Shown here: positions 13,085-64,000 of the stretch, piece after piece
Layout: the number at the start of each line of letters is the position of its first letter
How positions within the stretch are numbered: position 1 is the stretch's first letter
From: Gammaproteobacteria bacterium
Lineage (GTDB): Bacteria > Pseudomonadota > Gammaproteobacteria > Pseudomonadales > Azotimanducaceae
Assembly (NCBI GenBank): GCA_009837185.1
Contig: VXUA01000022.1
Location: forward strand, 1 to 64,000
Direction: 5' to 3'
DNA: 64,000 nt
Notes under the pieces: generated by a model
The model's input: only the letters and a program-made list of their open reading frames with translations
The model's database searches: none
What the model was told of the DNA's origin: nothing
Program-made: the position numbers and the translations under genes

Positions 13085-13094
13085 TATATTGAAT

Positions 13095-13117: not shown

Positions 13118-13129
13118 GTTGATTTAGGT

Positions 13130-13179
13130 GAGTGCGTAGCGCGCGTGGGTGGTTGAACACTCGCGCGAACTACGCACTC
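13130..13179. repeat. Second long hairpin after paralogue 1
   Basis: GAGTGCGTAGCGCGCG (13130-13145) pairs with CGCGCG plus CTACGCACTC (13162-13179), interrupted by a 2-nt AA bulge. The arm segment CTCGCGCGAA (13160-13169) recurs in the equivalent hairpin after paralogue 2, which has the same design including a 2-nt bulge. Confidence 0.75.
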
Positions 13180-13683
13180 TCTTTGCTTCCTCAAACATCT
13201 ACTAGCGACTTGCTACTACTGGTACAACGGGAAAGACGTTTGCGACTTTTCGTCCGCGGCATAGCTGACAAGTGTGGAGGACTCCACCTTAGTGCCGATC
13301 GCGATGCAACAGTTCGTCCAGTCAGCAGCAACTTAATTTTGCTTGAACATCAATTTGAGTCTTAGGCTGATGATAGAGTTTGGGAGATAGTTTGCGCAGA
13401 CGTTGTCGGAGCATCTGAACGAATTCTTACCAGACTCGCATGGTCTGACGACTCGGACGAGAGCTTTGATTGAATGGTGACCCGCCGGAGCAGTGCTACC
13501 TTGCACGGTATTAACTACCTAGAGTGCTATAGGTACCTTGAGTGCACTTCAGAATAGAATCCACAGATAACGTAATCAATTAAAATAGTGTTACGCTACG
13601 GAGGTAGACAGCGTACACCGCAGTCACTCGAAACAGGTGACATGCTATAGCGACTCTTCCTTCGTCCGAGCTCTTGAACCGTT

Positions 13684-13731
13684 GAGCTACCCAGATCACT
13701 AAACATTTTCGCGAGGAAATTGATCCATGAA
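13684..13731 (+). repeat. Duplicated leader, copy 2 (5' region of second paralogue)
   Basis: Second copy of the two exact 19-nt blocks described at 11197-11241, with a 10-nt spacer here. It supplies the ribosome site and start codon of paralogue 2. The third paralogue lacks this leader and uses an unrelated AGGAG-bearing sequence. Confidence 0.85.
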
Positions 13732-15592
13732 TAATTTTCAAAAAATCCTTAGCCTGTTTTGTGCCTTCGCACTAATTGCCGTGAGCAATGCAGGTAACCC
13801 GGATGCTTTTAGCATTGTTTCGAGCGAATTCATTTCAATTGAACCAGAAAGCAAGACCGAATCTGCTACTGCAGAAGCACCGTCAATTGAACCTGTAGAT
13901 TTTTCTGAAGCAGTTTTGACTATTTCGTACGAAACAACCAACTCCGATGGAGAGGCTGAAACCCAAATGCTCTATGAGGGATCGTACGAAGAACACTTCA
14001 TACATCTCCTTCAAGTCGGCGATCAACCCTTCCTTTTCTCCGAACCAACCGAAGTTTCGATTTCGCTCAAGATCACCGAAGACAGCGATCCTATGACGAT
14101 AAACACGGTTATGGACTCCGGATCGGACGTTCGTCTCGTATATGTCGACCATCCTGGCCCAAGAGATGAATTTCTTGTTTTTGGATCGAGTAATCAAGTT
14201 CTTAATTCAGAGAACAAGTTTTCGGTATCTGGAGATCTCAGTTTTATAGAAAACGATTCCCTTCATACTACATCAGCATTCGTGTGGGCAAATTTTGTCA
14301 ACTCAGAAGGCCAACGACAAGGAAAACAATGGGGACCTGTTTTGGTCGAGGACAATTCGTTCGTGATTGAAGGCGACGTCGACCGACCGATATCAGCCAC
14401 ACTGTATTTGCGTAATCAAAGTAGTTTTTTAAACGCTACCGCTCGAATCATTTTGGAACCCCAAGGTGAACTCAAGGTCGCAAAGTTAGGAAACCAGACA
14501 CAAGAAATTTCGGCTGTGAGTGGTAAAGGGTACCATGCTCAATTGATCGAAAGTTGGCAACAAAACGACGAGTACATTGCAATGGTAGAAGCGTGGACTT
14601 CTGAGCAGGAGCGATCCCGCAACGCGCCAGACGAACCTGCAGAGAGTTCTGATGAAGCGGAAGATGAAGCCACAACCGACTCCGAGGAAGAAGTGGCTGA
14701 CAATGAAGAAGACACGGACGAAGTTGATGCGATTGAACTCGTTGATGTTGTCGAACCAGCTGAAGGCTGTGAGGATGCAGTTGCACAAGAAGAAGAAGAA
14801 GCTGAGACCGTCGCGCAAGCGCCAGAGTACACTTATCCGAAATGGTATACGTTGAGAATGGAAGCAGTAGCTTACCAGAACGAAAAGTTACAAGACATCG
14901 CAAAGAATCACAAAGATCCAAATGCACAGTTGATCGCTATGCAAATGGGTGTGTTCAGTCCTTACGAAAACGCCGAAGAAGCGATTGCGGTGTGGCGAGC
15001 TCTTGCCGAGAAGTTTGATGCAGACTTTGTGGCTACTTACATCTCACCAGAATTGGAGAGAATTGAACTTGTACATACTCGCACCTTAAACCACGAAGCA
15101 CTGGTGCCCGGTCAAAAAGTTCCCGCATTTACACTAGCAAGTCTTGATGGTGATGATGTCTCGCTTTACGACTTGGCTGGAAAGAAGGACATGGTCCTGA
15201 TTGACTTCTGGGCTTCTTGGTGCGGTCCTTGTATCGCGACTTTCCCCGAGTTGAAGAAACTTCATGCAGCATATGCTGACGAAGACTTCGAAATCGTCGG
15301 TGTGTCTGTCGATGACAATTTCGAGGATTGGTCCGGTGGTGTTGAAGATCATCAACTACCTTGGGTACAGCTCGGTGAACTCAAGGATGCCGATAACGGC
15401 AGCCCTGTTTCAAAGAGCTATGGCATAAACTTCATCCCTTCGACTTTCTTGATTGACTCCCAAGGGTGTATTTATCACAAAAACATTAAACCTGGTGATT
15501 TAAAAACTTTTCTGGTTGATCGTTATGGCTTAGATGAGTCGTTAGCGGAACCAGAAGAAGAACCCGAAGAAACACCAGAGATGTCAAGCTAA
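13727..15592 (+). CDS. Secreted protein with C-terminal TlpA-like thioredoxin domain, paralogue 2
   Basis: 621 residues, colinear with paralogue 1 throughout. Signal peptide about 1-22 (ALIAVSNAG, probable signal peptidase I site), beta-rich half (NKFSVSGDLSF, NSFVIEGDVDRP, ILEPQGELKV), acidic linker with PAEGCEDAVAQ, then LVPGQKVPAFTLASLDGDD, DFWASWCGPCIATFPELK (Cys499, Cys502) and QGCIYHKNIKP. The tail is acidic (EPEEEPEETPEMSS). All three cysteine positions outside the signal peptide of paralogue 1 are kept, so the linker Cys and C-terminal Cys are probably functional rather than incidental. Same ribosome site as paralogue 1. Probably a separate transcript, since a terminator precedes it. 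Confidence 0.85.
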   Translation: MNNFQKILSLFCAFALIAVSNAGNPDAFSIVSSEFISIEPESKTESATAEAPSIEPVDFSEAVLTISYETTNSDGEAETQMLYEGSYEEHFIHLLQVGDQPFLFSEPTEVSISLKITEDSDPMTINTVMDSGSDVRLVYVDHPGPRDEFLVFGSSNQVLNSENKFSVSGDLSFIENDSLHTTSAFVWANFVNSEGQRQGKQWGPVLVEDNSFVIEGDVDRPISATLYLRNQSSFLNATARIILEPQGELKVAKLGNQTQEISAVSGKGYHAQLIESWQQNDEYIAMVEAWTSEQERSRNAPDEPAESSDEAEDEATTDSEEEVADNEEDTDEVDAIELVDVVEPAEGCEDAVAQEEEEAETVAQAPEYTYPKWYTLRMEAVAYQNEKLQDIAKNHKDPNAQLIAMQMGVFSPYENAEEAIAVWRALAEKFDADFVATYISPELERIELVHTRTLNHEALVPGQKVPAFTLASLDGDDVSLYDLAGKKDMVLIDFWASWCGPCIATFPELKKLHAAYADEDFEIVGVSVDDNFEDWSGGVEDHQLPWVQLGELKDADNGSPVSKSYGINFIPSTFLIDSQGCIYHKNIKPGDLKTFLVDRYGLDESLAEPEEEPEETPEMSS

Positions 15593-15613
15593 ACTATCTA
15601 TTAAATATTTCCT

Positions 15614-15660
15614 GCATACCGATGACTGATTGAGGATCCTGTCGACTGTCATCGGTATGC
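15614..15660. repeat. 13-bp perfect hairpin after paralogue 2
   Basis: GCATACCGATGAC (15614-15626) and GTCATCGGTATGC (15648-15660) are perfect inverted copies around a 21-nt loop, 21 nt after the stop codon. There is no T tract, so termination is uncertain; 3'-end protection or a protein-binding site are alternatives. Confidence 0.75.
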
Positions 15661-15701
15661 CTTAACGCACTTGCTTCATCGCCGGTCGCGTAAACACGAT
15701 T

Positions 15702-15745
15702 GAATGATTCGCGCGAGACTTAGGTAGCTCGCGCGAATTTCATTC
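15702..15745. repeat. Second long hairpin after paralogue 2
   Basis: GAATGATTCGCGCGAG (15702-15717) pairs with CTCGCGCGAA (15728-15737) and TCATTC (15740-15745), with a 2-nt TT bulge and a 10-nt loop. The architecture and the CTCGCGCGAA segment match the second hairpin after paralogue 1. Confidence 0.75.
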
Positions 15746-16120
15746 TTATTCCAATAACTCAAACCTCTCTCATGACATTCCTTAGTTTAGACGTGAGGAA
15801 TTGCGAGACCGAATTCATCTACTGAGCCAACTATTTCGTCAGTTCCACATGCTAGCAAAGTGTCTGTGTTTTTGGCATGCGCACAACTAAATCTCTAACT
15901 GAAACGCAAGGATTCGGTTTTGAACTCATACCAATGAACGGCCTGATTACAATTATTTGTCTCAAAAATGTCCGTGAACGCAAGGATGTAGAGGGTGGCG
16001 CGTCCAAGCTGCAAGTCCCCATTACAGGTTGGAATCAGTAAAACACCGCTAAATCCCCTTCATTGAAGCATCGTTTCGTGACAGAAACATCTCAACTCTA
16101 AAAAACCAGGAGATCAAAAA

Positions 16121-17986
16121 ATGAAAACCGCACTCAAAACATTTGGTTTGCTGTGCATCGTAACACTATTTGTCGCTTGCGATCAGAGCGACGAATCAAC
16201 GTCATTCAAGATTACAGGTGAAATCATTTCGATGATTCCCGATGTGTCCGAAGAAACTGGCACAGTCGAAGATGATTCAACCGACCAAGAAATTGCTGAG
16301 CCCATTGATTTATCCGAATCAGTACTGAATATTTCCTACGAAACAGTCGACGCAGAGGGAAATTCAGAAACCGTAACTTTGTACGAAGAAACTTTTACGG
16401 GTAGCTTCGAATACGAACCCGAAACTCTGGAACCCACCGAAGTAAAGATCTCTTTGCAGGTTTCTGAGGATACCGATCCAATGGAGATTACTACCTTGAT
16501 CGGAACGGGACACGATGTCAGTGTTGCTTTGATTGACTATCCAAGTCCCCGTCCTGATCAATTCGTGCTTGCTGGTACGTCAAGTCAAGTTATGGACTCA
16601 GAGAATAAATTCGTATTTTCGGGAGATCTAGGTTTCCTCGAAGAGAATCTTGCAGACGACACGATCGTATTGATGTATACACAAGTCTTTGACGATAGTG
16701 GTAACAGTCAATGGCAAGACTGGGGGCCGGTGTTGGTACAAAACAACTCGTTTCTTATAGAAGGCGTTGTCGAAGAACCATCTGTAGCTACTGTTACCAT
16801 TAGGGGCGATAGTTACTATGGGAGCTTGAGTTTGGTTCTTGAACCCCAAGGAACGTTTGAGATTTCCAAATTGGGAAGTCAAACTGAAGAATTAGCAGCT
16901 ACTAGTGGTTCAGGGTATCACGCCATGCTGATCGAGAGTTGGCAACAAAGTGACGAGTACGTCGAACTAGTTGATGCCTGGGCTTCTGAGTTAGCACTAT
17001 CAAGAAATCCTCCCGAACCCCCGAACTTGGCAGAAGGTGATACGACGAAGCAGAGTGAACAGGAAGAAAGTGAAACCACCAATGAAGAAGCGGCCGATGT
17101 AGAAGGCGATGCTGAAGATACTACAGAATCTGATATTGACGCAACTCAACTTGTCGATTCAGTAGAGCCCGCAGAAGGTTGCGAAGACGCAATCGCAGAT
17201 GATCCACAACAACCAGTACCAATTTCACCAATTCAACACGATACACCTAAGTACCTAGCCTTGCAACAACAAGCTAGAGAAATTCGAACTAAGACATTGA
17301 GAACGATTGTGGAAGAGAGCGATGACTCACTAGCTCAATACCTCGCCATGTCACTTGGACCTTATGTTGTCGACGCAGAAAGACTCGCAGGATGGCAATC
17401 ACTTGTAGAGAAATTCGACAAGGAATTCGTCGCCAATAGAATCACACCGCAGATAGACTTTATAAATTGGGCGTCCATTGCCAGAGCTAACGGTGCAGCT
17501 CTTATTCCAGGTCAACGTGTACCTGAATTTACACTAGCGAACGCGACGGATGAGGATTTAACACTCTATGACCTACTCGGCGAAAAGGATTTGGTGCTGA
17601 TTGATTTTTGGGCTTCTTGGTGCGGACCCTGTATCGCTGATTTTCCTGAACTCAAAAAACTCTATGCAGCTTATGAGGATGAAGACTTTGAAATCGTGGG
17701 AGTCTCCATCGATAGCAAGAGGGAAGACTGGATTGAAGGTCTTGAAGACCACAAATTACCGTGGACTAATCTCGGCGAACTTAAAGACTGGGAAGGTCCG
17801 GTCGCAACTAGTTATGGTGTGATGGGGATCCCGATGGGTTATCTTGTCGATTCGGAAGGGTGTATCTATAAGAAGCACGTTCGGCCGGCCGCGTTAAAGG
17901 AGTTTCTTGTTAATCGTTATGGTATGGATGAATCCCTCGTAGAACCGGATCCAGAAACCGAAGACATACCGGGAGTCTCTGGTTAA
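16121..17986 (+). CDS. Putative lipoprotein with C-terminal TlpA-like thioredoxin domain, paralogue 3
   Basis: 621 residues, same domain order as paralogues 1 and 2: beta-rich half (NKFVFSGDLGF, NSFLIEGVVEEP, VLEPQGTFEI), acidic linker with PAEGCEDAIAD, LIPGQRVPEFTLANATDED, DFWASWCGPCIADFPELK (Cys501, Cys504) and EGCIYKKHVRP. The N-terminus differs: LLCIVTLFVACDQSDES reads as a lipobox with Cys20 as the lipidated residue and Asp at +2, which in E. coli is an inner-membrane retention signal. So this copy may be anchored to the inner membrane while the others are free in the periplasm. AGGAG lies about 9 nt before the ATG. Two hairpins follow the gene. Confidence 0.85.
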   Translation: MKTALKTFGLLCIVTLFVACDQSDESTSFKITGEIISMIPDVSEETGTVEDDSTDQEIAEPIDLSESVLNISYETVDAEGNSETVTLYEETFTGSFEYEPETLEPTEVKISLQVSEDTDPMEITTLIGTGHDVSVALIDYPSPRPDQFVLAGTSSQVMDSENKFVFSGDLGFLEENLADDTIVLMYTQVFDDSGNSQWQDWGPVLVQNNSFLIEGVVEEPSVATVTIRGDSYYGSLSLVLEPQGTFEISKLGSQTEELAATSGSGYHAMLIESWQQSDEYVELVDAWASELALSRNPPEPPNLAEGDTTKQSEQEESETTNEEAADVEGDAEDTTESDIDATQLVDSVEPAEGCEDAIADDPQQPVPISPIQHDTPKYLALQQQAREIRTKTLRTIVEESDDSLAQYLAMSLGPYVVDAERLAGWQSLVEKFDKEFVANRITPQIDFINWASIARANGAALIPGQRVPEFTLANATDEDLTLYDLLGEKDLVLIDFWASWCGPCIADFPELKKLYAAYEDEDFEIVGVSIDSKREDWIEGLEDHKLPWTNLGELKDWEGPVATSYGVMGIPMGYLVDSEGCIYKKHVRPAALKEFLVNRYGMDESLVEPDPETEDIPGVSG

Positions 17987-53684: not shown

Positions 53685-55097
53685 CTAGCCACCCAGGAAC
53701 GGAGCAATGAACTTTTCGTGGAACGAGAAAGCGAAGACAACCAATATTGAAATGGGAGCTACGAACCGGATTGCAATAATCCAAATATTCCACGCCAAAT
53801 CGGATTGAATTTCTAATCCTTTTCGCACTCGGTCCCACGGCAAAAACCAACCAACGAATACAGCAATAATTAGACCGACTACCGGTAGTAAGAAGTAAGT
53901 CGTTGCTTTGTCAAAAATCTCGAAAAAATTCCAGTTTTCACTGTTGAATGGAAACTCTTTCAGCAGATTGAATGACAGCACAGACAACAATCCAAGCACC
54001 CAGGTGATCACTCCAATCGCAACAGCAATTTTTACTCTGCTTGTCTTGAATTTTTCCACAAAATATGCGATAGCCGGCTCTGTCAAAGATATACCAGAAG
54101 TAAAAGCTGCGAAACCAACAAACAAGAAAAAGAGGCCGCCGAATATCGCCCCGAGAGGCAGATTTCCGAACGCTGTAGGTGCCGTGACGAACAGCAAGCC
54201 CACCTTCTGTGTTGTCTCCATGTTCATTGCAAACACAATAGAGAAGATCGCGAGTCCAGCAACAATGGCTACCAGAGTATCGATGACGATGATGATTCCT
54301 ACAGCCGACTTTACAGATCCCTCGCGTGGCATGTAAGCACCGTACGCCATGATAGCTCCCATTCCAATCGACAATGTAAAGAACGCGTGACCCATCGCAG
54401 CCACTGGGGTTTCCCATGTCATTTTTGAGAAATCAAAATCGAACATGTACCGCACTGAATCCATAAATCCGCCCTGCGCGACACCATAAATGAGCATCAC
54501 AATGAGGAGCAAAAATAGCAGTGGCATACATATCCTAATGGCTAACTCAAGACCCTTGTTGACTCCTCGTGCCACGAAAAAGACTACTATTGCTATGAAA
54601 ATTGAAAACCAGAGCAATATTTGCCAAGGATTTGCTAAAAAGGCATCAAGTTTTTCACCGGATGCAGCTGCTTCGATGCCGGTGAACTCCCCGCTAAACA
54701 TCCGCCAGATGTAGAACATAATCCAACCAGCGATGACGGCGTAGAACGATAGAATCACAACGCCACCAACGACACCAGCCCAACCCATAAGCGACCAACT
54801 TTTCGATCTGTTGTGTTCCCGCGCGAGCTTGAGGATCGAGTTGACCGGACTCATTCGGCCCTCGCGTCCTACCATTATTTCTGCTGCCATCACGGGAAAA
54901 CCTATCAATGCAATACAGATCAGGTAGATCAGGAAAAAAGCACCCCCACCTTGCTCAGCCATCATGTAAGGAAACTTCCAGATGTTTCCAAGCCCCACTG
55001 CCGAGCCAACAGCAGCAAGCACAAAGAGCATCTTGCTCGACCACATACCATGCTGTGATCGATCGTTTACATTCGTAGTCACATTATTCTCGCTCAA
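53685..55097 (-). CDS. Neurotransmitter:sodium symporter family transporter
   Basis: Sodium-coupled amino-acid-type transporter of the NSS (LeuT-fold) family, 470 residues, about 11-12 membrane segments. The first helix AAVGSAVGLGNIWKFPYMMA carries the unwound sodium/substrate site; GGGAFFLIYLICIALIGFPV follows, and SFFTLSIGMGAIMAYGAYM-type segments (here HAFFTLSIGMGAIMAYGAYM) mark helix 6-7. Substrate cannot be told. TTG start with GGAGAG 7 nt upstream. 12 nt before ratA, so likely co-transcribed. Confidence 0.92.
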   Translation of the reverse strand: MSENNVTTNVNDRSQHGMWSSKMLFVLAAVGSAVGLGNIWKFPYMMAEQGGGAFFLIYLICIALIGFPVMAAEIMVGREGRMSPVNSILKLAREHNRSKSWSLMGWAGVVGGVVILSFYAVIAGWIMFYIWRMFSGEFTGIEAAASGEKLDAFLANPWQILLWFSIFIAIVVFFVARGVNKGLELAIRICMPLLFLLLIVMLIYGVAQGGFMDSVRYMFDFDFSKMTWETPVAAMGHAFFTLSIGMGAIMAYGAYMPREGSVKSAVGIIIVIDTLVAIVAGLAIFSIVFAMNMETTQKVGLLFVTAPTAFGNLPLGAIFGGLFFLFVGFAAFTSGISLTEPAIAYFVEKFKTSRVKIAVAIGVITWVLGLLSVLSFNLLKEFPFNSENWNFFEIFDKATTYFLLPVVGLIIAVFVGWFLPWDRVRKGLEIQSDLAWNIWIIAIRFVAPISILVVFAFSFHEKFIAPFLGG

Positions 55098-55230
55098 TTT
55101 CTACTCTCCACGGGCAAAATATCGCCCAAATCACTTCTTGTACAAGAACATAAGAATAATCAAAACGATCTACGGTTGCTATAACATAAGAATAGAACCG
55201 CTGGTTTTAGTCTCTTGATTAATCCTTCCT

Positions 55231-55695
55231 ATGACCAAGCCTAACAAACAACAGATCATTGCACGCAACCGAAAAGCGCGATTTGATTATGCGTTCGACC
55301 GTTTCTTTGAGGCGGGGATCGCGCTGGAAGGTTGGGAGGTGAAAAGTCTCAGGGCGGGTAAGGCTAATCTCACCGATTCCTACGTCATCATGGAAAATGG
55401 CGAAGCATTTCTAAAGGGGCTAAGGATTGACCCACTAGCCAGTGCTTCAACCCATGTCGAACCTGACGCCAATCGAACTAGAAAGTTGCTCCTACACAAT
55501 CACGAACTAGGACAAATCTATTCCGCTACTCAGACTAAAGGACGTACGTGTATCGCGCTGTCGATTTATTGGCGCGCACACCTTGTGAAATGTGAAATTG
55601 GACTTGCGGTCGGTCGTAAAAAGGTTGATAAACGTAATTTACTTCGCGAGCGAGAAACCAAACGAGAACAAGAGCGAACGTTACGCTCCCGGTAG
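55231..55695 (+). CDS. smpB: SsrA-binding protein SmpB
   Basis: Partner of tmRNA in rescuing stalled ribosomes. 154 residues: NKQQIIARNRKARFDYAFDR, ALEGWEVKSLRAGKANLTDS, LRIDPLASASTHVEPDANRT, RKLLLHNHELGQIYSATQTK and a basic tail (KKVDKRNLLRERETKREQER). The ssrA gene, often nearby, is not in this window. Confidence 0.97.
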   Translation: MTKPNKQQIIARNRKARFDYAFDRFFEAGIALEGWEVKSLRAGKANLTDSYVIMENGEAFLKGLRIDPLASASTHVEPDANRTRKLLLHNHELGQIYSATQTKGRTCIALSIYWRAHLVKCEIGLAVGRKKVDKRNLLRERETKREQERTLRSR

Positions 55696-55701
55696 TTGAG
55701 G

Positions 55702-56454
55702 TTACCCTCTTCCCATGAACGGCATCTCGGATGCTAGAATGGTTAAGAATTGAACATTCGCGTCGAGCGGCAGACTATCCATATACACGATTGCCTCGGC
55801 AACGTGTTCTACATCGAAAGTGGGCTCTGGTTTGCGAGTGCCGTCTGGTTGCAACACACCTTCTTCCATCAAGGACGTCATCTCTGTTGCAGCATTGCCA
55901 ATGTCAATTTGACAACACACAACGTTGTGGTCTCGGCCATCAAGCGTGGTGGATTTCGTTAATCCCGTGAGAGCGTGTTTCGTGGCAGTGTAAGGAGCAG
56001 ATAAAGGTCGGGGAGAGTGCTGTGCCGCGATGGATCCGTTGTTGATAATCCGACCACCTCGTGGAGTTTGGAATTTCATAATTTTCATGGCCGCGCGAGT
56101 ACACAAAAATGCTCCAGTAAGATTCGTTTGAACCACTCGTTCCCATTGTGAGAGCGTCAATTCTTCGATCGGAACCGCTGGTGCCCCGACGCCGGCGTTG
56201 TTAAACAGAAGATCCAAGCGGCCGAATCGGGAGATAGTAACATCAAACAGACGGATCACTTCACTTTCTTTACCAATATCTGTAGGGACAGTAAACAATC
56301 GGTCGTCAGCACCTGCTACCTCTTCTAGCTCATCGAGCTTACTCTTCCTTCTACCGACGGCGACAACATAATACTCTCTTTTTAACAGCGCTAAAGTCGT
56401 GTGTTTACCCACGCCCGTGCCCGCGCCCGTAATGATTGCTACTTTACTCATCAA
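55702..56454 (-). CDS. Short-chain dehydrogenase/reductase
   Basis: Classical SDR oxidoreductase, 250 residues. Cofactor motif [23 protein letters not shown], and catalytic Ser...Tyr-x-x-x-Lys in NNGSIAA and [10 protein letters not shown]. The Arg-Arg-Lys after beta-2 (AVGRRKSK) suggests NADP(H). Substrate unknown. Convergent with smpB (6 nt apart). Either of two adjacent Met codons may start it. Confidence 0.88.
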
Positions 56455-56596
56455 TAAACTCCTTAATCCACGACCGTTTTGATCGGATCTTTCTTACCGT
56501 TTTCTGCCTACTTGAAACACTAACGCTAATTGATAGTAAGCAAGTTATGATAAAAAACATTCTTGAATTTTTTTCCATCAACCAATCTAGCAGAAT

Positions 56597-57310
56597 ATGA
56601 CTCTGACTTCAAACTCCGTTCGCGCCGTATTCTTCGATCTTGGGGAAACCTTATTCCAACCTTTAGACAATTGGGTTACGTCAGGAAATATCGCCAAGTT
56701 CGCGGGAACGATACAAGTCCCAGTAGGCAGTGAAGAGTTAATCACACTATACCGTCAGCTAAGGGAAGAAGTCACACTAGATTTTGCAAAGCGTTCATTC
56801 TATTTGCATAAAGATTTTGTCAACGAAGCAATGCGTCGATTGCTTGCACACTTTGGACTCAAAGATGTAGGTGAAGCAATTAAAAATTTTTCTTACTCGC
56901 AACGAGATGCTGTAATCGAATATTTGAAACCGCAGACAGATTGTTTTGAAGTACTGGAAGCTCTTCGAGAGCGAGAGTTTAAGCTTGCAATAGTGTCGAA
57001 CATTGATGACGACTGGCTAGATCCCTTAATCGAAGCATGGAAACTCGATAGTTACGTTGACTTCATTCTCAGTTCAGAAACCGCACGATCGTGCAAACCC
57101 GACACTTCGATATTCATGCAGGCTAGCCATGCTGTTGGTATTCCACCGCATCAAATCGTGTTTGTCGGTGACTCTTTTGTGAACGATGTAGAAGGAGCGT
57201 ATAGTGTTGGCATGCACCCAGTGTGGCTTAACCAGCACGATGCGCTGCCGACTACCGAACTTTCAGTACCGCAGATCAAGACTCTGAGTGCTTTGCTAGA
57301 GTTGCTCTGA
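56597..57310 (+). CDS. HAD-superfamily hydrolase
   Basis: 237-residue HAD (IA-type) protein with a helical cap. Motif I is FFDLGETLFQP: the nucleophile Asp is present but the usual second Asp, the general acid, is Gly. Motif II is LAIVSNIDDD, motif III the Lys in SCKPDTSIF, motif IV VFVGDSFVNDVEGAYSVGM. DLG variants exist in functional HAD subfamilies, so activity is not excluded. Its end overlaps the convergent epimerase gene by 15 bp. Confidence 0.85.
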   Translation: MTLTSNSVRAVFFDLGETLFQPLDNWVTSGNIAKFAGTIQVPVGSEELITLYRQLREEVTLDFAKRSFYLHKDFVNEAMRRLLAHFGLKDVGEAIKNFSYSQRDAVIEYLKPQTDCFEVLEALREREFKLAIVSNIDDDWLDPLIEAWKLDSYVDFILSSETARSCKPDTSIFMQASHAVGIPPHQIVFVGDSFVNDVEGAYSVGMHPVWLNQHDALPTTELSVPQIKTLSALLELL

Positions 57311-58222
57311 AACCTGCTGAATCTCATGCAGGGTTTGACGGAGTTTTTTAACACCCCCTCCTCGCCAACCGAGTTTTGTGAGTCCAGCTGTCCCCATGTT
57401 GTTGATTGGGGGTTGTAGTTGGTCAATGCTTGACTTGTCGGATGTATTGTTCAAAAGACGAAGACATCGTTGTACTAGATACCGTTCACTGACCAAGATG
57501 TCCGAACAATTAAAGCTTCTTCGGTGGACATCGTTGTGTCGCTGTTGTAGCAGTAAGAGAAGTGCCTCAGCGACGTCTGCACCGTGTACCTCAGTGTAGA
57601 CTTCATTGGATAAGGATGACAGATCTCTGTCCTGTAGATGAGGATCTGTTACTAAGTTCCACCATTTCGTGCGATCTCGTGGCCATGAAAGACCGTAGAT
57701 TCCCGTAGGTCGAAGGGAACAAAACGTCATTTCGTCGTAGAGATTTGCTAGTAATTCACTTGACCACTTTAGTAGACCGTAGTGGTTTACAGGGACTGGG
57801 TCATCTGTGTCATCGACGAATCTATCGCTGATCTGACAACCGTCGAAAACGGCTCGCGACGAAAGAAAAATGAATTTGGCTACGTTTTTGCCGCGGCATG
57901 CACGCACCAGTCGTAACGTACCACCAAAATTCTGATCCCAAAACCATGCTGGGTCATCTCCTTCGCCACCACGATAACTACCGGTAGCTGACATGAACGC
58001 CATATGAACTACGGCATCGCATCGATGGACTAGTTTTTCAAGCGATGCAGCATCCTCCATGTTGCCACAGATGAGTTCAAGTCTGCCATCGTAATCTGTT
58101 AAAGGGTCTGACGCGTTTAGTGTCCGCCGTACTTGTGCGGCTACGGTGTACCCAGCGTCCAGAAGGTCCTTGACTACAAACCGGCCAAGGTAACCCGTAG
58201 TCCCTGTGATCGCAATTCTCAC
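57296..58222 (-). CDS. NAD-dependent epimerase/reductase, last gene of sulfoquinovose-type operon
   Basis: Extended SDR (about 308 residues). Starts with GTG at 58222, overlapping the GT8 stop by 4 nt (GTGA), so that RIAITGTTGYLGRFVVKDLL forms the NAD-binding N-terminus; the upstream open frame only shadows the GT8 gene. Further: VVHMAFMSATGSY, FIFLSSRAVFDG and the YGLLKWSSE region with Tyr and Lys of the catalytic triad, and LRPTGIYG. Because it is coupled to GT8 and sqdB-like genes, it may reduce or epimerise an intermediate of the same pathway, by analogy with Rhodobacter SqdC whose mutant accumulates sulfoquinovosyl-dihydroxyacetone. That link is inference; homology to SqdC was not tested. 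Confidence 0.8.
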   Translation of the reverse strand: MRIAITGTTGYLGRFVVKDLLDAGYTVAAQVRRTLNASDPLTDYDGRLELICGNMEDAASLEKLVHRCDAVVHMAFMSATGSYRGGEGDDPAWFWDQNFGGTLRLVRACRGKNVAKFIFLSSRAVFDGCQISDRFVDDTDDPVPVNHYGLLKWSSELLANLYDEMTFCSLRPTGIYGLSWPRDRTKWWNLVTDPHLQDRDLSSLSNEVYTEVHGADVAEALLLLLQQRHNDVHRRSFNCSDILVSERYLVQRCLRLLNNTSDKSSIDQLQPPINNMGTAGLTKLGWRGGGVKKLRQTLHEIQQVSEQL

Positions 58223-59022
58223 GGTGGTGGTGTATAGCGTGGAACGTCTTCGGGTATTTTTCGATCCTCCAAGATAGAGTACCACAAATCAATGAGCGGC
58301 TTGAGTTGCTCGCTTCGATCGTGATCGCGCTCCCAAGGCTTTTCGTATTGATAGTGCACTACCCTGATCGATTCCCATTCCCACAACTGTGGTAGATTGA
58401 AGTAAATGTACTGTAGGACGTTGTAGACATACGGTAAACCGTGCCAGTCTGGAAAGTATGCTTCCAAGAAGGTTTGGTCGGTGCGTTTCCAAAAAGTTTC
58501 AGGTGCTACTAACTTCTCGAGCATGTGGTCATAAGTTGCCTTTGCCGGTTCCGCGACAAACACTCCCGAATTTAATCGATGCATGTCTTGAAGCGTTTCA
58601 TACAGGTTCGGTGCGGCCGAAAACTCCGGATAACCGAATAGTCTGTCAATGTTTCTGACCACAATAGTGTCCGCGTCCAGAAATACCACGCGCTGATATT
58701 CCTCAAACTCCCACACGCGCAACTTGCAGAAATTGTCCAATGGATCATGAAATTTCGGCTTTGTTCCTTTGGTAAAAGGCGCGACAGAGTGTTGTCTTTC
58801 TCTCGAATGTCTTGAAACGAAGTCGTCGGAAAACTCTGGACGTGGAACAATTCGAACATCACATCCTTCACGTTCAAGTTGATCTAATGGTAGGTCCGGC
58901 CGCGTTGCCATGACTACGATGTGTTGGCCTGGGTTGGACAACTTCAACGATCGCACTAATGCAAGTGCACCGAGTGTGTAGTCATCGTTTGTGACGAGAG
59001 TCACAAACGCAGAATCTGTCAA
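58219..59022 (-). CDS. GT8 glycogenin-like glycosyltransferase (SqdD-like)
   Basis: 267-residue family 8 glycosyltransferase. Features: FVTLVTNDDYTLGALALVRS at the start, FCKLRVWEFEEYQRVVFLDA leading into the metal-binding DAD, LFGYPEFSAAPNLYE, HRLNSGVFVAEP, and FLEAYFPDWHGLPYVYN with WEWESIRVVHYQYEKPW at the end, the glycogenin-type HY.GxxKPW region. TTG start, 1 nt after the sqdB-like stop. Rhodobacter sphaeroides SqdD, which transfers sulfoquinovose in sulfolipid synthesis, is also glycogenin-like, so the same job is likely here. A different UDP-sugar donor remains possible. Confidence 0.85.
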   Translation of the reverse strand: MTDSAFVTLVTNDDYTLGALALVRSLKLSNPGQHIVVMATRPDLPLDQLEREGCDVRIVPRPEFSDDFVSRHSRERQHSVAPFTKGTKPKFHDPLDNFCKLRVWEFEEYQRVVFLDADTIVVRNIDRLFGYPEFSAAPNLYETLQDMHRLNSGVFVAEPAKATYDHMLEKLVAPETFWKRTDQTFLEAYFPDWHGLPYVYNVLQYIYFNLPQLWEWESIRVVHYQYEKPWERDHDRSEQLKPLIDLWYSILEDRKIPEDVPRYTPPP

Positions 59023-59023
59023 A

Positions 59024-60244
59024 CTACCGCTTTCTTTTCGCCGTCGCTATGTCTACAACGGACGAAATTTTTGATTGAATCTCATGAGTCCACGCTGACT
59101 GTGCAGGAATCTTCGATTGATCGATACGGTGTGCGTATTTCTCTGCAACGTGAACCAGCTCTTCAAGCATTCCCACGCGTAGCGTCACTGGTTCGAGTCC
59201 AAGTTCCAGCAATTGTTTGTTACTCACTTTGAGATCGTTTTCATCTGCTTCTTTCCGCGGATTTGGTAGGTTGACAATCTCCACACCACTCATGTCTGAC
59301 ACCAACTTAGCCAGATCGCGAATTCTGAAAGTCTCGGTCATTTGATTAAAGATTTTCGGACGATCACCACGAGCAGGTGGGTTATTCACTGCAAGTTCAA
59401 TGCATCTAACGGAGTCTTGGATGTGAATGAACGCTCTGGTCTGACCGCCCGTGCCATGCACGGTCAAAGGGTGTTTCACAGCCGCTTGAATCAGGAATCG
59501 ATTAAGAACGGTGCCGTAGTCTCCGTCGTAATCAAACCGGTTTACGAGCTGTTCGTGTCGTCGTGTCTGATCAGTATGCGTTCCCCATACTACTCCTTGA
59601 TGTAGGTCTGTGATGCGCACCAAATCGTTACTCGCATAGAACGCAAACATCAATTGGTCCAGACACTTAGTTAAGTGATAAACGCTGTTAGGATTGGTGG
59701 GATAGAGAATTTGTCGTTGAAAGTCCTTTCCATCGTCAGCGGGAATTTTGACATCAAGATATCCTTCTGGAATGGTTGCGCCGACATCGCTATAACCATA
59801 AACACCCATTGTTCCTAAATGGACGAAGTGCGTATCAAGCTCTAGTTCAACCAATGCACTCAGCAGGTTGTGCGTGGCAGCCACATTGTTATTCACCGTA
59901 TAGGTCTTCGACCTATCGTTCTTCATGGAATACGGAGCGGCTCGTTGTTGTGCTAAATGAATGAGAGCATCCGGTCGATATTGATCGAGCCAGAGTTTGA
60001 CACGGGTGTACTCTTCCGCGATGTCGAGTAATTCAAAGCGCATGGTTCGCCCAGAAACGTTTTTCCAGATTCTTAGACGTTCCTGAATGGAGTCCATCGG
60101 AGTTAGAGATTGAACCCCCAACTCGGTATCTATCCGGCGGCGACTAAGATTGTCGACAATCGTGATTTCGTGGCCAGCGTTCGAAAGATGTAAGCATGTC
60201 GGCCATCCAACGAACCCGTCACCGCCAAAAACTGCAATACGCAT
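59024..60244 (-). CDS. sqdB: UDP-sulfoquinovose synthase (SqdB/SQD1 family)
   Basis: Extended SDR, 406 residues, that in this family converts UDP-glucose and sulfite to UDP-sulfoquinovose. It follows plant SQD1 closely: FGGDGFVGWPTCLHLSNAGH, VDNLSRRRIDTELGVQSLTP, LAQQRAAPYSMKNDR, HLGTMGVYGY (catalytic Thr), YHLTKCLD (catalytic Tyr and Lys), TDLHQGVVWGTHTDQTRRHE, and GGQTRAFIHIQDSVRCIELA. ATG start with GGAGAAG upstream. First gene of a three-gene minus-strand operon with GT8 and an epimerase. Expected product use: sulfoquinovosyl-diacylglycerol in membranes; a sulfoquinovosylated glycan is the alternative. Confidence 0.88.
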   Translation of the reverse strand: MRIAVFGGDGFVGWPTCLHLSNAGHEITIVDNLSRRRIDTELGVQSLTPMDSIQERLRIWKNVSGRTMRFELLDIAEEYTRVKLWLDQYRPDALIHLAQQRAAPYSMKNDRSKTYTVNNNVAATHNLLSALVELELDTHFVHLGTMGVYGYSDVGATIPEGYLDVKIPADDGKDFQRQILYPTNPNSVYHLTKCLDQLMFAFYASNDLVRITDLHQGVVWGTHTDQTRRHEQLVNRFDYDGDYGTVLNRFLIQAAVKHPLTVHGTGGQTRAFIHIQDSVRCIELAVNNPPARGDRPKIFNQMTETFRIRDLAKLVSDMSGVEIVNLPNPRKEADENDLKVSNKQLLELGLEPVTLRVGMLEELVHVAEKYAHRIDQSKIPAQSAWTHEIQSKISSVVDIATAKRKR

Positions 60245-60463
60245 GAATCAATCTTCTCCGTTGGTAAGTGTCATTTTCAATTTTTCGACATGCGCTAACG
60301 CTAATCAAAGTTTGAGGACCTAGTAAAATTTTAGACGTAAAATCAAAATCCACCGATAGTTGTATTTCTACCACTAGTAATTAGCACAGGTAGGTTGGGG
60401 TCGAGACCGTTCGACTTAAAATCGCACACAACTCAATAAATAGCCCAATATTAAGATCTTTTT
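60245..60463. other. Divergent intergenic region sqdB / PLD-helicase remnant
   Basis: 219 nt, A/T-rich, with no gene. A promoter for sqdB must lie here, but no pair of hexamers with good spacing was found by eye. Confidence 0.4.
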
Positions 60464-61348
60464 TTGTCAGACTCATTGCTCAAAGTACGAGACAGCCTAA
60501 CCTCACATTACCGAAGTGGCCACCACACTTTAGCTAAGGACTTTTTTGAACCCTGCTTGTTGGAAGCTGTCCAGTATAGACGGTCTGCGGGGTACTTTTC
60601 AAGTTCTGCACTGACGACCTGGGCCGCAGCGTTACCAAGGTTTGTATTGTCGAATGAACTATCGATAAATCTGATCACGTCACCAAAATTATTTAAGAAG
60701 GACATCTCTGTATTACGAAAACTTACTAGCGACAAAGAACGAGAAAAATATCGACAGCAGTGTACTGATCGAGTTCTAGCGGAGATATTAGAGTTCATCG
60801 CAACTCCATCGAATAATCAACAATGCGCCGAGATTTTTGCGTGGCTTGTAGCAAACTCGAAACTTCGGCTTCGATTTGCCTTTCCTAACAATGCGAGTCG
60901 AATTGGAGTGTTTCACGAAAAAATTGGTATCTTCGATTTTCCGGACGGTACACAAGTCGCGTTCACGGGATCCGCTAATGAGACGTTCAGCGGTCTCCAT
61001 GCAAACTACGAATCCATAGATGTTTACCGTAGCTGGATTGATAGTGACCTCGAGAGGGTAGTTACAAAAGCTGACCAATTTGACGAGGCTTGGGAAGGGG
61101 AAGCTGCAGGTCTCAACGTACATTTACCTTCTAAAAGTGTAATCGAGCGGTTGGTCGAATGTGCTCCTGAAACACTAGACGCTTCAATCTTTACTCAAAG
61201 GCGAACTTCCACTAAGACTCAAAACAACAATAGTCGATGGAGACATCAGGACGATGCCGTTGAAACGTTTTTGTCTAAGAACAGCCAACAGGAGACATGG
61301 TTTATGGGGTTTATATCGAAGGCCCACGCGTTTTGGTTGTACGCCTAG
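60464..61348 (+). pseudogene. Truncated PLD-nuclease/DEAD-helicase protein (helicase part lost)
   Basis: The 294-codon frame opens with TTG. Residues 1-200 match the phospholipase-D-like nuclease module found at the N-terminus of some restriction/defence helicases: SAGYFSSSALTTWAAALPRF, LINLITSPKLF-type strand, and the HKD motif FHEKIGIFD (His151, Lys153, Asp158) followed by VAFTGSANET. Near residue 262 comes RWRHQDDAVETFLSKN, which looks like the Q-motif entry of a superfamily 2 helicase, where a Walker A (TGTGKT) should follow within about 20 residues. Instead the frame runs out in unrelated codons and stops at 61348. So the helicase half, probably 500 residues or more, is deleted. An intact short nuclease is possible but less likely. 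Confidence 0.7.
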
Positions 61349-61390
61349 TACAAATTCGACAGCCCGATCAATATCGCGTGGAAGAGACAA
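61277..61390 (-). pseudogene. Possible N-terminal fragment of an HNH-nuclease gene
   Basis: On the minus strand a TTG-started frame reads SLPRDIDRAVEFVLGV...YKPHKPCLLLAVL. The PHKPxLLLAxL stretch is the hallmark near the N-terminus of HNH-type restriction endonucleases, at about the right distance from the start. Homology ends at 61277, exactly where the plus-strand helicase homology (ending FLSKN) also ends. This points to an inversion/deletion junction joining two broken genes. The match is short and made by eye; chance is not excluded. Confidence 0.35.
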
Positions 61391-61679
61391 ATCGACTTAC
61401 TCTAGATTGCTGAAGTACTAATTACCATAAGAATCAACTGACTGGGTGAATGCACTACTATCTTCGATAAGCACTTACTCGATCTAGCACTTACAAACAC
61501 ATCTCGTAGTTGAAGTTTCTCTAACAGTATAGCACAGCGTAGTTGTAAAATCTGATAGCGCGCCCTTCGAACCGGAACTGTATGTATTTGCTTGTGATTG
61601 TAGGGACTTTGTTTACACTATCACTTTGTGGTAAAAAAGCGTTTTCCACATGCTGAGAAACACTTCTCCTTAAAGACGT
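61391..61679. other. Intergenic region before the TSCCQ paralogues, with candidate promoter
   Basis: No gene seen. TTGTGA (61592-61597), 16-nt spacer, TACACT (61614-61619) is a fair promoter for the first TSCCQ gene, starting transcription about 55 nt upstream of its ATG. Confidence 0.35.
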
Positions 61680-62195
61680 ATGACAGAAACCTTGTCACAA
61701 ACCAACGTAGATCGAGCTCTACTCACGCCGAAGGAATCAAGATGGTTTTTCGGCACGCGATGTTTGATATTTTTACTTAGCTTAATGAGCGTAGGATGCT
61801 CGTTTTTCGGTGGTTTTTACGTTGTCTTCGGTGGCGCATTTGCGCTAGTTTTCCCGATAATTGCGAATGTGATTTGGCAACTGAAATTGTCAACACAGTT
61901 TCCACCAAAATCAAATTCCATTCATCCGAACTCTAGCAAACCTTGGTTAGTTTTGCCGCTCTTTTTCTTGCCCATCTGCGATCACATCGCTTACATCATT
62001 AAACGACAATTCAAAAAACAATCGGATGACAACGTATCATCTCCGTTGTTTCGTAGTGAGTCATCAGATTTGATGCTTCCACCTGGCAAGATTCAAACCC
62101 TGGTTGGGAATATACAAAATCATGTTGCAGTAGCATTTATTACAAGCTGTTGTCAGGCTTTCAGCGTCACAATGTACTACTTATCTTTCCTCTAA
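61680..62195 (+). CDS. TSCCQ membrane protein, paralogue 1
   Basis: Not recognised. 171 residues, four hydrophobic stretches (about 24-45, 47-68, 88-107, 147-170) separated by a short basic loop (KRQFKK) and a hydrophilic segment. Aligns without a single gap to the next two genes; hand count gives 79 identical residues of 171 with paralogue 2. Invariant pieces: TR(C/F)(L/M)I at 26-30, AN..WQ at 62-67, LPI..HI at 97-103, QNH at 146-148 and TSCCQ at 155-159. No signal peptide, known motif or enzyme signature. The vicinal cysteines in the last helix could bind metal or a thiol, but this is speculation. Confidence 0.7.
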   Translation: MTETLSQTNVDRALLTPKESRWFFGTRCLIFLLSLMSVGCSFFGGFYVVFGGAFALVFPIIANVIWQLKLSTQFPPKSNSIHPNSSKPWLVLPLFFLPICDHIAYIIKRQFKKQSDDNVSSPLFRSESSDLMLPPGKIQTLVGNIQNHVAVAFITSCCQAFSVTMYYLSFL

Positions 62196-62293
62196 GCGCG
62201 TGAGTTAGTTTGATTTGCATTCGGCATAACAGTTCTACTAAAAGGAGTTGTTCGAAACCGAAATGAATTTTCCACTCACCTTGATTAACGCGA
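62196..62293 (+). other. Spacer with conserved leader before TSCCQ paralogue 2
   Basis: 98 nt containing GTTGTTCGAAACCGA at 62247-62261, nearly identical to GTTGTTCTAAACCGA at 62859-62873 before paralogue 3. An AAAGGAG (62241-62247) is too far from the ATG at 62294 to serve it directly. No terminator, so the three genes may share a transcript. Confidence 0.5.
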
Positions 62294-62818
62294 ATGTCCC
62301 AATCCTTGCCAATCACTAAAGTTGATCATTCAGTACTCCCGCCGAATGAAACTGCTAAATTTCAGTTCACGCGATGCCTGATATTCGTACTTTGCCTAGT
62401 GAGCACAGCTTGGCCGTTTTTTGGCGATCTTTACGGAATCTTTTGTTGGGTGTTTGCATTCATGTGCCCCTTGTTCGCGAATATAGCATGGCAATCTCGA
62501 TTCGCACCGCAATATCCACCGAAGTCTGGTTCGGTTCGAGAGATTCGTAGCAAACCTTGGGTAACAAAACCACAATTTTGGTTACCGATTGTCGAACACA
62601 TTTTCTGCTGGTATAAACGCCAATCCAAGAAACATTCAGGGGACCTTGTACAACCTCCCATGGTTTGTATTGAGTCATCGAGTTTCATACACGTCAGTGG
62701 GAAGTTTCAGACTAGGCTTTTGAAGCTGCAAAACCATGTGGTGGTCGCTTTCATAACGAGTTGTTGTCAAGTCTTCGGTGTAATTGGATACTTCGTGACA
62801 CTGTCTACGTTAGCTTGA
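62294..62818 (+). CDS. TSCCQ membrane protein, paralogue 2
   Basis: 174 residues; same layout and motif positions as paralogue 1 (TRCLI 26-30, FANIAWQ 61-67, KPQFWLPIVEHI 92-103, LQNHVVVAFITSCCQ 145-159). Start at ATG 62294 is supported by the gapless N-terminal alignment of all three copies (MSQSLP, MSPSLP) rather than by a ribosome site. The hydrophobic pattern predicts a small integral membrane protein. Function unknown. Confidence 0.7.
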   Translation: MSQSLPITKVDHSVLPPNETAKFQFTRCLIFVLCLVSTAWPFFGDLYGIFCWVFAFMCPLFANIAWQSRFAPQYPPKSGSVREIRSKPWVTKPQFWLPIVEHIFCWYKRQSKKHSGDLVQPPMVCIESSSFIHVSGKFQTRLLKLQNHVVVAFITSCCQVFGVIGYFVTLSTLA

Positions 62819-62904
62819 AGACTTGATGTACTATCGTCCTACAACCTCTGCTAAGAAAGTTGTTCTAAACCGAGATTAATGTCCTCTTGCCTCGATAAGT
62901 AACC

Positions 62905-63432
62905 ATGTCTCCATCCCTACCATCCACTAATTCTTACCAGCCGTTACTCACACCTAATGTATCCGCTTGGTTTTACGCGACGCGATTCATGATACTGTTC
63001 CTAAGCGTTGTGGGGGGAGTGTGTACACTATTTAATAGCTATGGCGTTTTGGTTGGTTATGGGTTCGGATTTGTTTGTCCTATGATCGCTAATGCGGTTT
63101 GGCAATCACGATTATCGAAACAGAATACACCGAGGTCAGATTCGTCGCCATTGAAGTATCGCAACTATCTGATTCTAAAACCACAATTCTTTTTGCCTAT
63201 TCTCCACCACATTGCGCTCGGAATTGAAAGGATATACAAGATACCACCGGAAGAAAACGAAGAATCCGCATTGATTCTTGGTGAAGCATCAAGTTTTGAA
63301 GGCTCAACTAACAAGACTCATGCGTGGTGTGGGAGGCTACAAAATCATATAGTAGTCGCATTAGTAACTAGCTGTTGCCAAGTCTACGGTATCGTAGTCT
63401 ACTTCATGCATCTGATTAAGCCACTAGGATAA
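62905..63432 (+). CDS. TSCCQ membrane protein, paralogue 3
   Basis: 175 residues, same frame of motifs: TRFMI 26-30, IANAVWQ 61-67, KPQFFLPILHHI 92-103, LQNHIVVALVTSCCQ 145-159. The basic loop after the third hydrophobic segment is reduced (ERIYK) and an acidic run (PPEENEE) follows, so it is the most diverged copy. ATG at 62905 agrees with the other two starts. The three genes run head to tail with 98- and 86-nt gaps. Confidence 0.7.
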   Translation: MSPSLPSTNSYQPLLTPNVSAWFYATRFMILFLSVVGGVCTLFNSYGVLVGYGFGFVCPMIANAVWQSRLSKQNTPRSDSSPLKYRNYLILKPQFFLPILHHIALGIERIYKIPPEENEESALILGEASSFEGSTNKTHAWCGRLQNHIVVALVTSCCQVYGIVVYFMHLIKPLG

Positions 63433-63569
63433 TTTTCTGTGCAGGCGGCAAGCTAATATGGTTCCCTAGTTGAAATGCACCCAAAAAAATGTCGCGCGCT
63501 GCGTACTTAACATCGTCTAGCCTGCCGTAAACGTCATAAAACCAAGGTGCATAATTGCTGTGTTACACA

Positions 63570-63646
63570 GCCCCGGTGGCACAGTTGGATAGCGCGGCCG
63601 CCTCCTAAGCGGCAGGTCGAAGGTTCGAGTCCTTCTCGGGGCGCCA
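63570..63646 (+). tRNA. tRNA-Arg (CCU)
   Basis: 77-nt cloverleaf with encoded CCA. Acceptor GCCCCGG pairs with TCGGGGC (one G-U), anticodon loop CTCCTAA on a GCCGC/GCGGC stem gives anticodon CCU, reading AGG. T loop TTCGAGT is standard. It borders the accessory block on its right; tRNA-Arg genes are common integration sites, but no duplicated 3' end was found by eye. Confidence 0.97.
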
Positions 63647-63662
63647 CTTCCAGTTTAGAACT

Positions 63663-64000
63663 CTAGACTTGGAATACTTTATCCGATGGGATTCCCTGCT
63701 TCCAACGTTGATAATCCGCACTTGTATCAACGTCCCATAGCGTGGGAAGAAGGAAGACTTGCAAATCAAGATCGGCGGCTCGTGTCAGGGTTTGTTCCAA
63801 TACAAGATCGCTTCCCCAAGAAATGTTCTCAAACAATTTCTCGCACGGTTCATTCATTCCTATCAAACAATAACCACCATCTTCAGTCGGACCCACTACT
63901 ACGTCCTGCTGTGTCGTTAAGTGGTTAAGAGCCTTGTCTATGTAGTCCTCGCTCATGAGAGGAACATCTGCACCGATCACCAATTTTGCCCCTTCAACCA
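63663..64000 (-). CDS. TIGR04282-family glycosyltransferase (DUF2064), 5' end outside window
   Basis: The C-terminal ~112 codons are present; the frame stays open to the window edge (VEGAKLVIGADVPLM), so the N-terminus is cut off. Family pattern: VIGADVPLM (metal-binding Asp), VVVGPTEDGGYCLIGMNEP, LFENISWGSDLVLEQTLTRA and LLPTLWDVDTSADYQRWKQG. A GT-A fold transferase related to GT2/MobA-like proteins; donor and acceptor unknown. Stop lies 16 nt from the tRNA-Arg 3' end. Confidence 0.88.
   Translation of the reverse strand, partial: VEGAKLVIGADVPLMSEDYIDKALNHLTTQQDVVVGPTEDGGYCLIGMNEPCEKLFENISWGSDLVLEQTLTRAADLDLQVFLLPTLWDVDTSADYQRWKQGIPSDKVFQV

What the first reader, a model, noticed from the sequence alone, without database searches (positions are those of the whole stretch)
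57296..60244. Sulfoquinovose (sulfolipid-type) operon in a gammaproteobacterium
An SqdB/SQD1-like UDP-sulfoquinovose synthase, a glycogenin-like GT8 transferase and an SDR epimerase/reductase are packed with 1-nt and 4-nt junctions. In Rhodobacter sphaeroides, sqdB works with the GT8-type sqdD and with sqdC. Sulfolipid is mostly known from phototrophs and alphaproteobacteria, so its presence here suggests phosphate-sparing membranes or a sulfonated surface glycan.
Basis: partly seen in the sequence, partly recalled or inferred. Interest (0 to 1): 0.75.

Follow-up and report, generated by a model that had tools for sequence, protein, structure and literature searches.

The report
Sulfolipid operon in a gammaproteobacterium
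Three linked genes in this probably non-photosynthetic marine gammaproteobacterium match the known bacterial set for making a sulfur-containing, phosphorus-free membrane lipid; the pathway is not new, but its host group is little known for it and seems to lack the usual way of making the sulfite that the pathway needs.

Summary
The three genes are real: sqdB (59024-60244, -), sqdD (58219-59022, -) and sqdC (57296-58222, -), with a 1-nt gap and a 4-nt overlap. They match the sqdBDC operon of rhizobia and rhodobacters in order and sequence: SqdB about 70% identical, SqdD 54-58%, SqdC 30-33%. Of 80 named SqdB loci, 78 carry D and C; two end at once after sqdB. SqdB trees make the gammaproteobacterial BDC rows a sister, not a branch, of the alphaproteobacterial ones. 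All 17 congeners searched have sqdB; BDC stands in the 16 testable. Selection is purifying (dN/dS about 0.02 for sqdB). No Pho box was found. A separate solo SqdB lineage fits the surface-glycan idea better, though glycosyltransferase-like genes also stand upstream here. Oddity: this genome shows no match to PF01507, PF01077, PF02668 or PF05995 and no Xsc over cut-off, so the sulfite source is unexplained. Best reading: a working SQDG operon, a new member of a known kind.

The parts
59024..60244 (-). sqdB, UDP-sulfoquinovose synthase, 406 aa
   Evidence: NF041015 322.7 bits; Arabidopsis SQD1 E 4.5e-96; about 70% identical to rhizobial and roseobacter SqdB; in the BDC clade
58219..59022 (-). 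sqdD, GT8 sulfoquinovosyltransferase, 267 aa, TTG start; DAD at residues 116-118
   Evidence: PF01501; 54-58% identical to the GT8 of the operon in roseobacters and Sinorhizobium; only PF01501 match in its genome; motif positions
57296..58222 (-). sqdC, SDR oxidoreductase, 308 aa, GTG start overlapping the sqdD stop by 4 nt; GxxGxxG at 7-13 and YGLLK at 148-152
   Evidence: PF01370; 30-33% identical to the SDR of the alphaproteobacterial operon; junction; motifs
56597..57310 (+). HAD-family phosphatase gene, convergent with sqdC (ends overlap by 15 nt); neighbour conserved in many gammaproteobacterial sqdBDC loci; link in function is a guess
   Evidence: PF13419; tblastn homologue in 13 of 23 non-redundant gammaproteobacterial BDC loci and in 0 of 74 alphaproteobacterial loci held
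60245..60463 (.). upstream intergenic stretch with the presumed promoter; no Pho box and no sigma-70 consensus found

Best explanation
This is a working sqdBDC operon that makes the sulfolipid SQDG in a probably non-phototrophic, probably sponge-associated gammaproteobacterium. SqdB adds sulfite to UDP-glucose to give UDP-sulfoquinovose. The GT8 enzyme SqdD moves the sulfonated sugar to a glycerol-type acceptor. SqdC reduces or trims that intermediate (recalled: an sqdC mutant of Rhodobacter sphaeroides piles up sulfoquinovosyl-dihydroxyacetone), and an acyltransferase outside the operon (SqdA-like or general) completes the lipid. Gene identity, order, conserved motif positions and purifying selection are shown here. 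The reactions, the lipid product and the source of sulfite are inferred.
For: The same three genes in the same order in 78 of 78 testable named loci (80 held), including Sinorhizobium meliloti. The SqdB tree puts the window in a gammaproteobacterial BDC clade (support 96/94) sister to the alphaproteobacterial BDC clade (97/83) and apart from solo SqdB. The D and C trees also hold the alphaproteobacterial copies together (100). SqdB keeps the GGDG, QRxAPYS, GTMG and YHxxK stretches shared with SQD1; SqdD keeps DAD; SqdC keeps GxxGxxG and YxxxK. dN/dS is 0.018-0.023 for B, 0.038-0.130 for D and 0.111-0.192 for C against the 5 nearest congeners. sqdB is in 17 of 17 congeners searched and BDC in the 16 testable. 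PMC11346425 (passages read) states that SqdA, B, C and D are needed in R. sphaeroides and shows loss of SQDG on deleting sqdB.
Against: No match to the families of sulfate assimilation (PF01507) or sulfite reductase (PF01077) in this genome, and none of the tested sulfite-yielding enzymes, so substrate supply is unexplained. SqdC is only 30-33% identical to the alphaproteobacterial copy. Glycosyltransferase-like genes stand upstream in the window and in two congeners. SqdA was not searched for. There are no lipid data.
Confidence: 0.8

Rival explanations
1. The operon makes a sulfoquinovose-bearing surface glycan or another glycolipid, not SQDG.
For: Solo SqdB homologues of other gammaproteobacteria (54-62% identical) lie beside Wzy, glycosyltransferase and UDP-glucose dehydrogenase genes, and a Rhodobacteraceae plasmid copy lies beside a sulfotransferase and PAPS reductase. 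In congeners L168 and L035 a TIGR04283 glycosyltransferase and a TIGR04282-type gene stand upstream of sqdB on its strand (in L035 the second is known by 55% identity to the window copy), and the window has a TIGR04282-type gene, cut by the window end, at 63663-63998.
Against: The window SqdB is in the BDC clade, not the solo clade, and its partners are SqdD and SqdC as in the SQDG operon. The upstream glycosyltransferase-like genes are not kept in the other congener stretches looked at.
Confidence: 0.12
2. The product is SQDG and the operon is a phosphate-starvation (Pho regulon) response that spares phosphorus. (A version of the best explanation, not exclusive of it.)
For: A PhoB-like regulator at the NCBIfam cut-off is in the genome. 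In S. meliloti sqdB is counted in the Pho regulon (PMC10315480, passages read). One congener, L168, has a 2-mismatch site on the other strand, matched by 0 of 100 shuffles.
Against: The best Pho-box match upstream in the window has 5 mismatches, and 88 of 100 shuffles did as well; no site is shared by the congeners.
Confidence: 0.25
3. The operon is a relic, kept by chance after loss of the sulfite supply.
For: No match to sulfate assimilation or sulfite reductase families in the same genome.
Against: Intact reading frames, conserved junctions and purifying selection on all three genes; sqdB in every congener searched.
Confidence: 0.04

Closest known systems
sqdBDC operon of Rhodobacter sphaeroides and Sinorhizobium meliloti (SQDG synthesis)
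   Same: Same three families, same order, tight spacing; SqdB about 70% and SqdD 54-58% identical to rhizobial and roseobacter copies. The R. sphaeroides genes themselves were not in hand.
   Different: Gammaproteobacterial host; a separate sister clade; SqdC diverged to 30-33%; convergent HAD phosphatase neighbour; no Pho box found.
Arabidopsis SQD1 (UDP-sulfoquinovose synthase of plants)
   Same: Full-length match, E 4.5e-96; GGDG, QRxAPYS, GTMG and YHxxK stretches kept.
   Different: The residue after GTMG is Val, not Glu; the ten BDC-type rows aligned share this, Sinorhizobium included. The plant transferase is of another family (recalled).
Solo SqdB homologues of other gammaproteobacteria
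   Same: 54-62% identical SqdB.
   Different: No SqdD match beside them where the stretch reaches far enough; polysaccharide gene neighbours in several.
E. coli WaaO and WaaJ (LPS-core GT8)
   Same: Same broad GT8 class (recalled).
   Different: No significant match to the window GT8 (best E 0.16) and very long branches in the tree.

Membership tests
sqdBDC (SQDG) operon | UDP-sulfoquinovose synthase of the SqdB family, with the shared motif stretches kept | tested here: met
   NF041015 322.7 bits, as for S. meliloti SqdB (335.4); both under the 575 cut-off. SQD1 alignment and motifs.
sqdBDC (SQDG) operon | SqdB groups with SqdB of sqdBDC operons, not with other epimerases or solo SqdB | tested here: met
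   BDC clade 97; gamma 96/94 and alpha 97/83, solo rows apart.
sqdBDC (SQDG) operon | GT8 transferase orthologous to SqdD, with DxD | tested here: met
   54-58% identity; tree; not WaaJ or WaaO; DAD motif.
sqdBDC (SQDG) operon | SDR gene related to SqdC, third in the operon | tested here: met
   30-33% identity to the alphaproteobacterial SDR, same place in 78 of 78 testable named loci.
sqdBDC (SQDG) operon | Acyltransferase SqdA in the genome | not tested
sqdBDC (SQDG) operon | Sulfite available to SqdB | tested here: inconclusive
   No PF01507, PF01077, PF02668 or PF05995 match in G000, and no Xsc over its cut-off; other sources were not tested.
sqdBDC (SQDG) operon | SQDG present in the membrane | not testable with these tools
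   Needs lipid analysis.
Pho-regulon sqd operon | Pho box upstream of sqdB | tested here: not met
   Best site in the window has 5 mismatches, 88 of 100 shuffles as good.
Surface-glycan SqdB locus | SqdB of the solo lineage, beside polysaccharide genes | tested here: inconclusive
   Not of the solo lineage. Next neighbours are a HAD gene and a PLD-like fragment, but a TIGR04282-type gene lies 3.4 kb upstream in the window and TIGR04283 plus TIGR04282-type genes upstream in two congeners.

The most novel reading that the evidence does not exclude
A marine animal symbiont lineage makes SQDG although it can neither reduce sulfate to sulfite nor reduce sulfite further. It would draw sulfite from the host or from thiosulfate or persulfide turnover and lock it into a lipid, so that the sulfolipid serves both as membrane charge and as a sulfite sink in the symbiosis.
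Probability: 0.25. Interest if true: 0.6.

Novelty: new member of a known kind. Interest (0 to 1): 0.42.

Why it matters
SQDG in natural samples is usually credited to phototrophs (recalled); sqdB in heterotrophs has been reported but was called rare in pelagic marine settings (PMC4796936, passages read). A heterotrophic gammaproteobacterial genus with sqdB in every member searched would be another source, relevant to lipid biomarkers and to the sulfoquinovose supply for its degraders. The missing sulfite pathway makes a sharp question: where does the sulfonate sulfur come from in these cells?

Tried and rejected
Phototrophy as the reason for SQDG: not supported. PF00124 had no match in the 18 genomes of the genus; 1 of the 58 genomes searched had it (G026, another genus).

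LPS transferase identity of the GT8: rejected. Non-SqdB epimerase identity of the synthase: rejected.

The low NCBIfam score as a sign of a new enzyme: rejected after the S. meliloti, Rhodobacter and Loktanella controls also scored under the cut-off.

Taurine as sulfite source: no PF02668 match at 1e-10 in G000; Xsc-model matches in 16 of 18 genomes were all under the cut-off, as were those of the 14 controls. Cysteine dioxygenase: 0 of 18. PMC8163846 (passages) also argues that taurine breakdown is not a key process in the sponge genomes it studied. Persulfide dioxygenase, thiosulfate sulfurtransferase, alkanesulfonate monooxygenase and host supply remain untested.

Pho box: not found in the window (33 upstream stretches tried, one of them, L038, with 117 N). 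Rfam at gathering score in 55000-64000: only a tRNA. Promoter consensus: 1 site against a mean of 4.2 in shuffles, none before sqdB.

Paper searches on this operon and on sponge links: no title or abstract start that was listed deals with sqdBDC in gammaproteobacteria (searches listed 25 of 29 and 10 of 33 papers). No whole text was read, and most subscription journals are absent from the library. The one sqdB passage in a glacier-stream paper concerns cyanobacteria (PMC10410210).

Full report
Observation. The window holds three minus-strand genes at the stated place: 59024-60244, 58219-59022 and 57296-58222. The third gene most likely begins at GTG 58222, inside the listed ORF, giving a 4-nt overlap with the second gene; the first two are 1 nt apart. 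The five nearest congeners have the same junctions. Most of the rest of the window looks like ordinary gammaproteobacterial housekeeping (recN, dnaK, dnaJ, carA, carB, ftsH, infB, smpB and others), names recognised by me from the translations, not from a family search.

What the genes are. The first protein matches UDP-sulfoquinovose synthase NF041015 at 3.1e-96 and Arabidopsis SQD1 at 4.5e-96. Its 322.7 bits lie under the curated cut-off of 575, but SqdB of S. meliloti, a Rhodobacter and Loktanella score 335.4, 323.5 and 328.0. The second is a GT8 protein close to glycogenin, the only PF01501 match in the genome. The third is an extended SDR. Motif stretches are intact in all three; which residues are catalytic in SQD1 is recalled.

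Link to the known operon. A plasmid search gave SqdB at 70.6, 70.4 and 69.2% identity in Sinorhizobium sp. M103, Marinovum and Loktanella. The next two genes there are homologues of the window GT8 (58, 57 and 54%) and SDR (32, 33 and 30%) (annotation for Loktanella and Marinovum; one search showed none for Sinorhizobium). D and C follow B in 78; the other two loci end within 300 bases of sqdB. Rhodobacter sphaeroides sqdBDC serves SQDG synthesis and deletion of sqdB removes the lipid (PMC11346425, passages read). PMC10315480 names SqdB, SqdC and SqdD for S. meliloti (passages read).

Trees. On 81 SqdB rows (a choice: all 28 alphaproteobacterial named loci used were picked from 71) the BDC-type rows form one clade (97) with the solo type outside. 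On 45 rows, searched more carefully, the 17 gammaproteobacterial BDC rows form a clade (96/94) beside 20 alphaproteobacterial rows (97/83). So the operon is not a recent import from a sampled alphaproteobacterium; an older transfer in either direction is open. The D and C trees hold the 31 alphaproteobacterial rows together (100), although in the D tree, rooted on the distant Waa proteins, the genus is not one clade. E. coli WaaJ and WaaO have no significant similarity to the window GT8 (best E 0.16).

Distribution. sqdB is in all 17 other genomes of the genus that were searched. BDC was seen in 16; in the seventeenth (G001) the contig ends inside sqdB. Of 19 genomes from other genera of the family 5 have a strong SqdB match: 2 with D and C, 2 without, and 1 (G031) whose contig ends where D would be. 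Of 21 genomes from the rest of the order in that one search had a match at 5.8e-70 (37%) and the others only weak epimerase-type ones or none. In an order sample 11 of 293 genomes matched at 1e-40 or better, own genome included; in a class sample 16 of 321 at 1e-100 or better, own genome included. Of the 17 other matched places of the class sample none showed a SqdD match; two (G331, and G459 contig 53) end too soon to tell. Record titles of close relatives (OMG group isolate Plut_88873 at 99%, COS3, COS4 and RHO3 bins), taken with a paper on Coscinoderma and Rhopaloeides sponges (PMC8163846, passages read), suggest sponge association; that is an inference from bin labels.

Function and selection. 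Against the five nearest congeners dN/dS is 0.018-0.023 for sqdB, 0.038-0.130 for sqdD and 0.111-0.192 for sqdC; for one of them (L030) dS of D and C is 1.6-1.7, near saturation, and for four more distant congeners dS was saturated and gave no usable ratio. No reaction-centre match was found in the genus. A PhoB-like protein passes its cut-off only with its frame neighbours counted (296.3 against 296.2). No Pho box stands before sqdB in the window: 5 mismatches, matched by 88 of 100 shuffles. S. meliloti, as a control, had a 3-mismatch site matched by 1 of 100; congener L168 had a 2-mismatch site on the other strand matched by 0 of 100; other alphaproteobacterial rows had no clear site.

The sulfite question. 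SqdB uses sulfite (PMC11346425). PF01507 (the family of CysH and CysD) gave no match in G000; of 18 genomes of the genus 8 had a match over 150 bits, 4 (G002, G008, G010, G011) only ones under 35 bits, and 6 none. PF01077 (sulfite reductase) was in 7 of 18, not in G000. Xsc matches were all under the cut-off. PF02668 had no match at 1e-10 in G000 and 7 congeners and 6 to 13 matches in each of the other 10. PF05995 had none in 18. G000 is 95% complete, and the same absence in near relatives argues against an assembly gap. All 11 genomes without a PF01077 match keep sqdB. A sponge symbiont that makes sulfite from taurine is known (PMC10356861, passages read), but the markers of that route were not found here. 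I have no tested source of sulfite; host supply, thiosulfate or persulfide turnover are candidates from general knowledge.

Neighbours. A HAD phosphatase gene convergent with sqdC has a homologue in 13 of 23 non-redundant gammaproteobacterial BDC loci held and in 0 of 74 alphaproteobacterial ones. On the other side the flank varies even between congeners with 98-99% identical SqdB. In L168 a TIGR04283 glycosyltransferase and a TIGR04282-type gene stand before sqdB on its strand, both over their cut-offs; L035 has the TIGR04283 gene and a homologue (55%) of the window's TIGR04282-type gene; the window copy of the latter lies at 63663-63998, cut by the window end. They could be a remnant of a longer glycolipid cluster or mere neighbours.

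A second SqdB lineage. Other gammaproteobacteria, and one Rhodobacteraceae plasmid, carry SqdB at 54-62% identity without a SqdD match nearby. Ten neighbour proteins from six such loci included a Wzy polymerase, an epimerase, three group-1 glycosyltransferases, a GT2, a UDP-glucose dehydrogenase and two metallophosphatases; one had no family.

Verdict. A new member of a known kind, in an under-recognised host lineage, with one real open question about its sulfite supply.

Noticed in passing
56597-57310 (+): A HAD phosphatase gene convergent with sqdC has a homologue in 13 of 23 non-redundant gammaproteobacterial BDC loci and in 0 of 74 alphaproteobacterial loci; it may act in the pathway.
   Followed up: partly
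63663-63998 (-); L168:1520-2820; L035:2703-3993: A TIGR04282-type gene, and in two congeners also a TIGR04283 'arsenosugar biosynthesis' glycosyltransferase, stand upstream of sqdB on the same strand.
   Followed up: partly
60464-61348 (+): A 294-aa protein matches only the first part of an 895-aa PLD-like anti-phage family, far under its cut-off (NF042964), so it looks like a remnant. The stretch upstream of sqdB differs between near congeners; in L171 an AIPR gene stands there. It may be a variable, defence-type insertion site.
   Followed up: partly
11237-17986 (+): Three tandem paralogous proteins of 615, 621 and 621 aa with acidic linkers and a C-terminal thioredoxin-like WCGPC motif.
   Followed up: no
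61680-63432 (+): Three tandem small membrane-type paralogues (171-175 aa); the one scanned has no Pfam match; homologues lie near the operon in two congeners.
   Followed up: no
L019:4501-8264: A Rhodobacteraceae plasmid carries a solo SqdB homologue next to a sulfotransferase and a phosphoadenylyl-sulfate reductase, perhaps its own sulfite supply for a sulfonated glycan.
   Followed up: partly
genus of the window (G000-G017): The 8 genomes without a PF02668 match are small (2.5-2.8 Mb for the 7 that are over 90% complete, against up to 3.8 Mb in others) and none has a PF01077 match, a pattern of genome reduction.
   Followed up: partly
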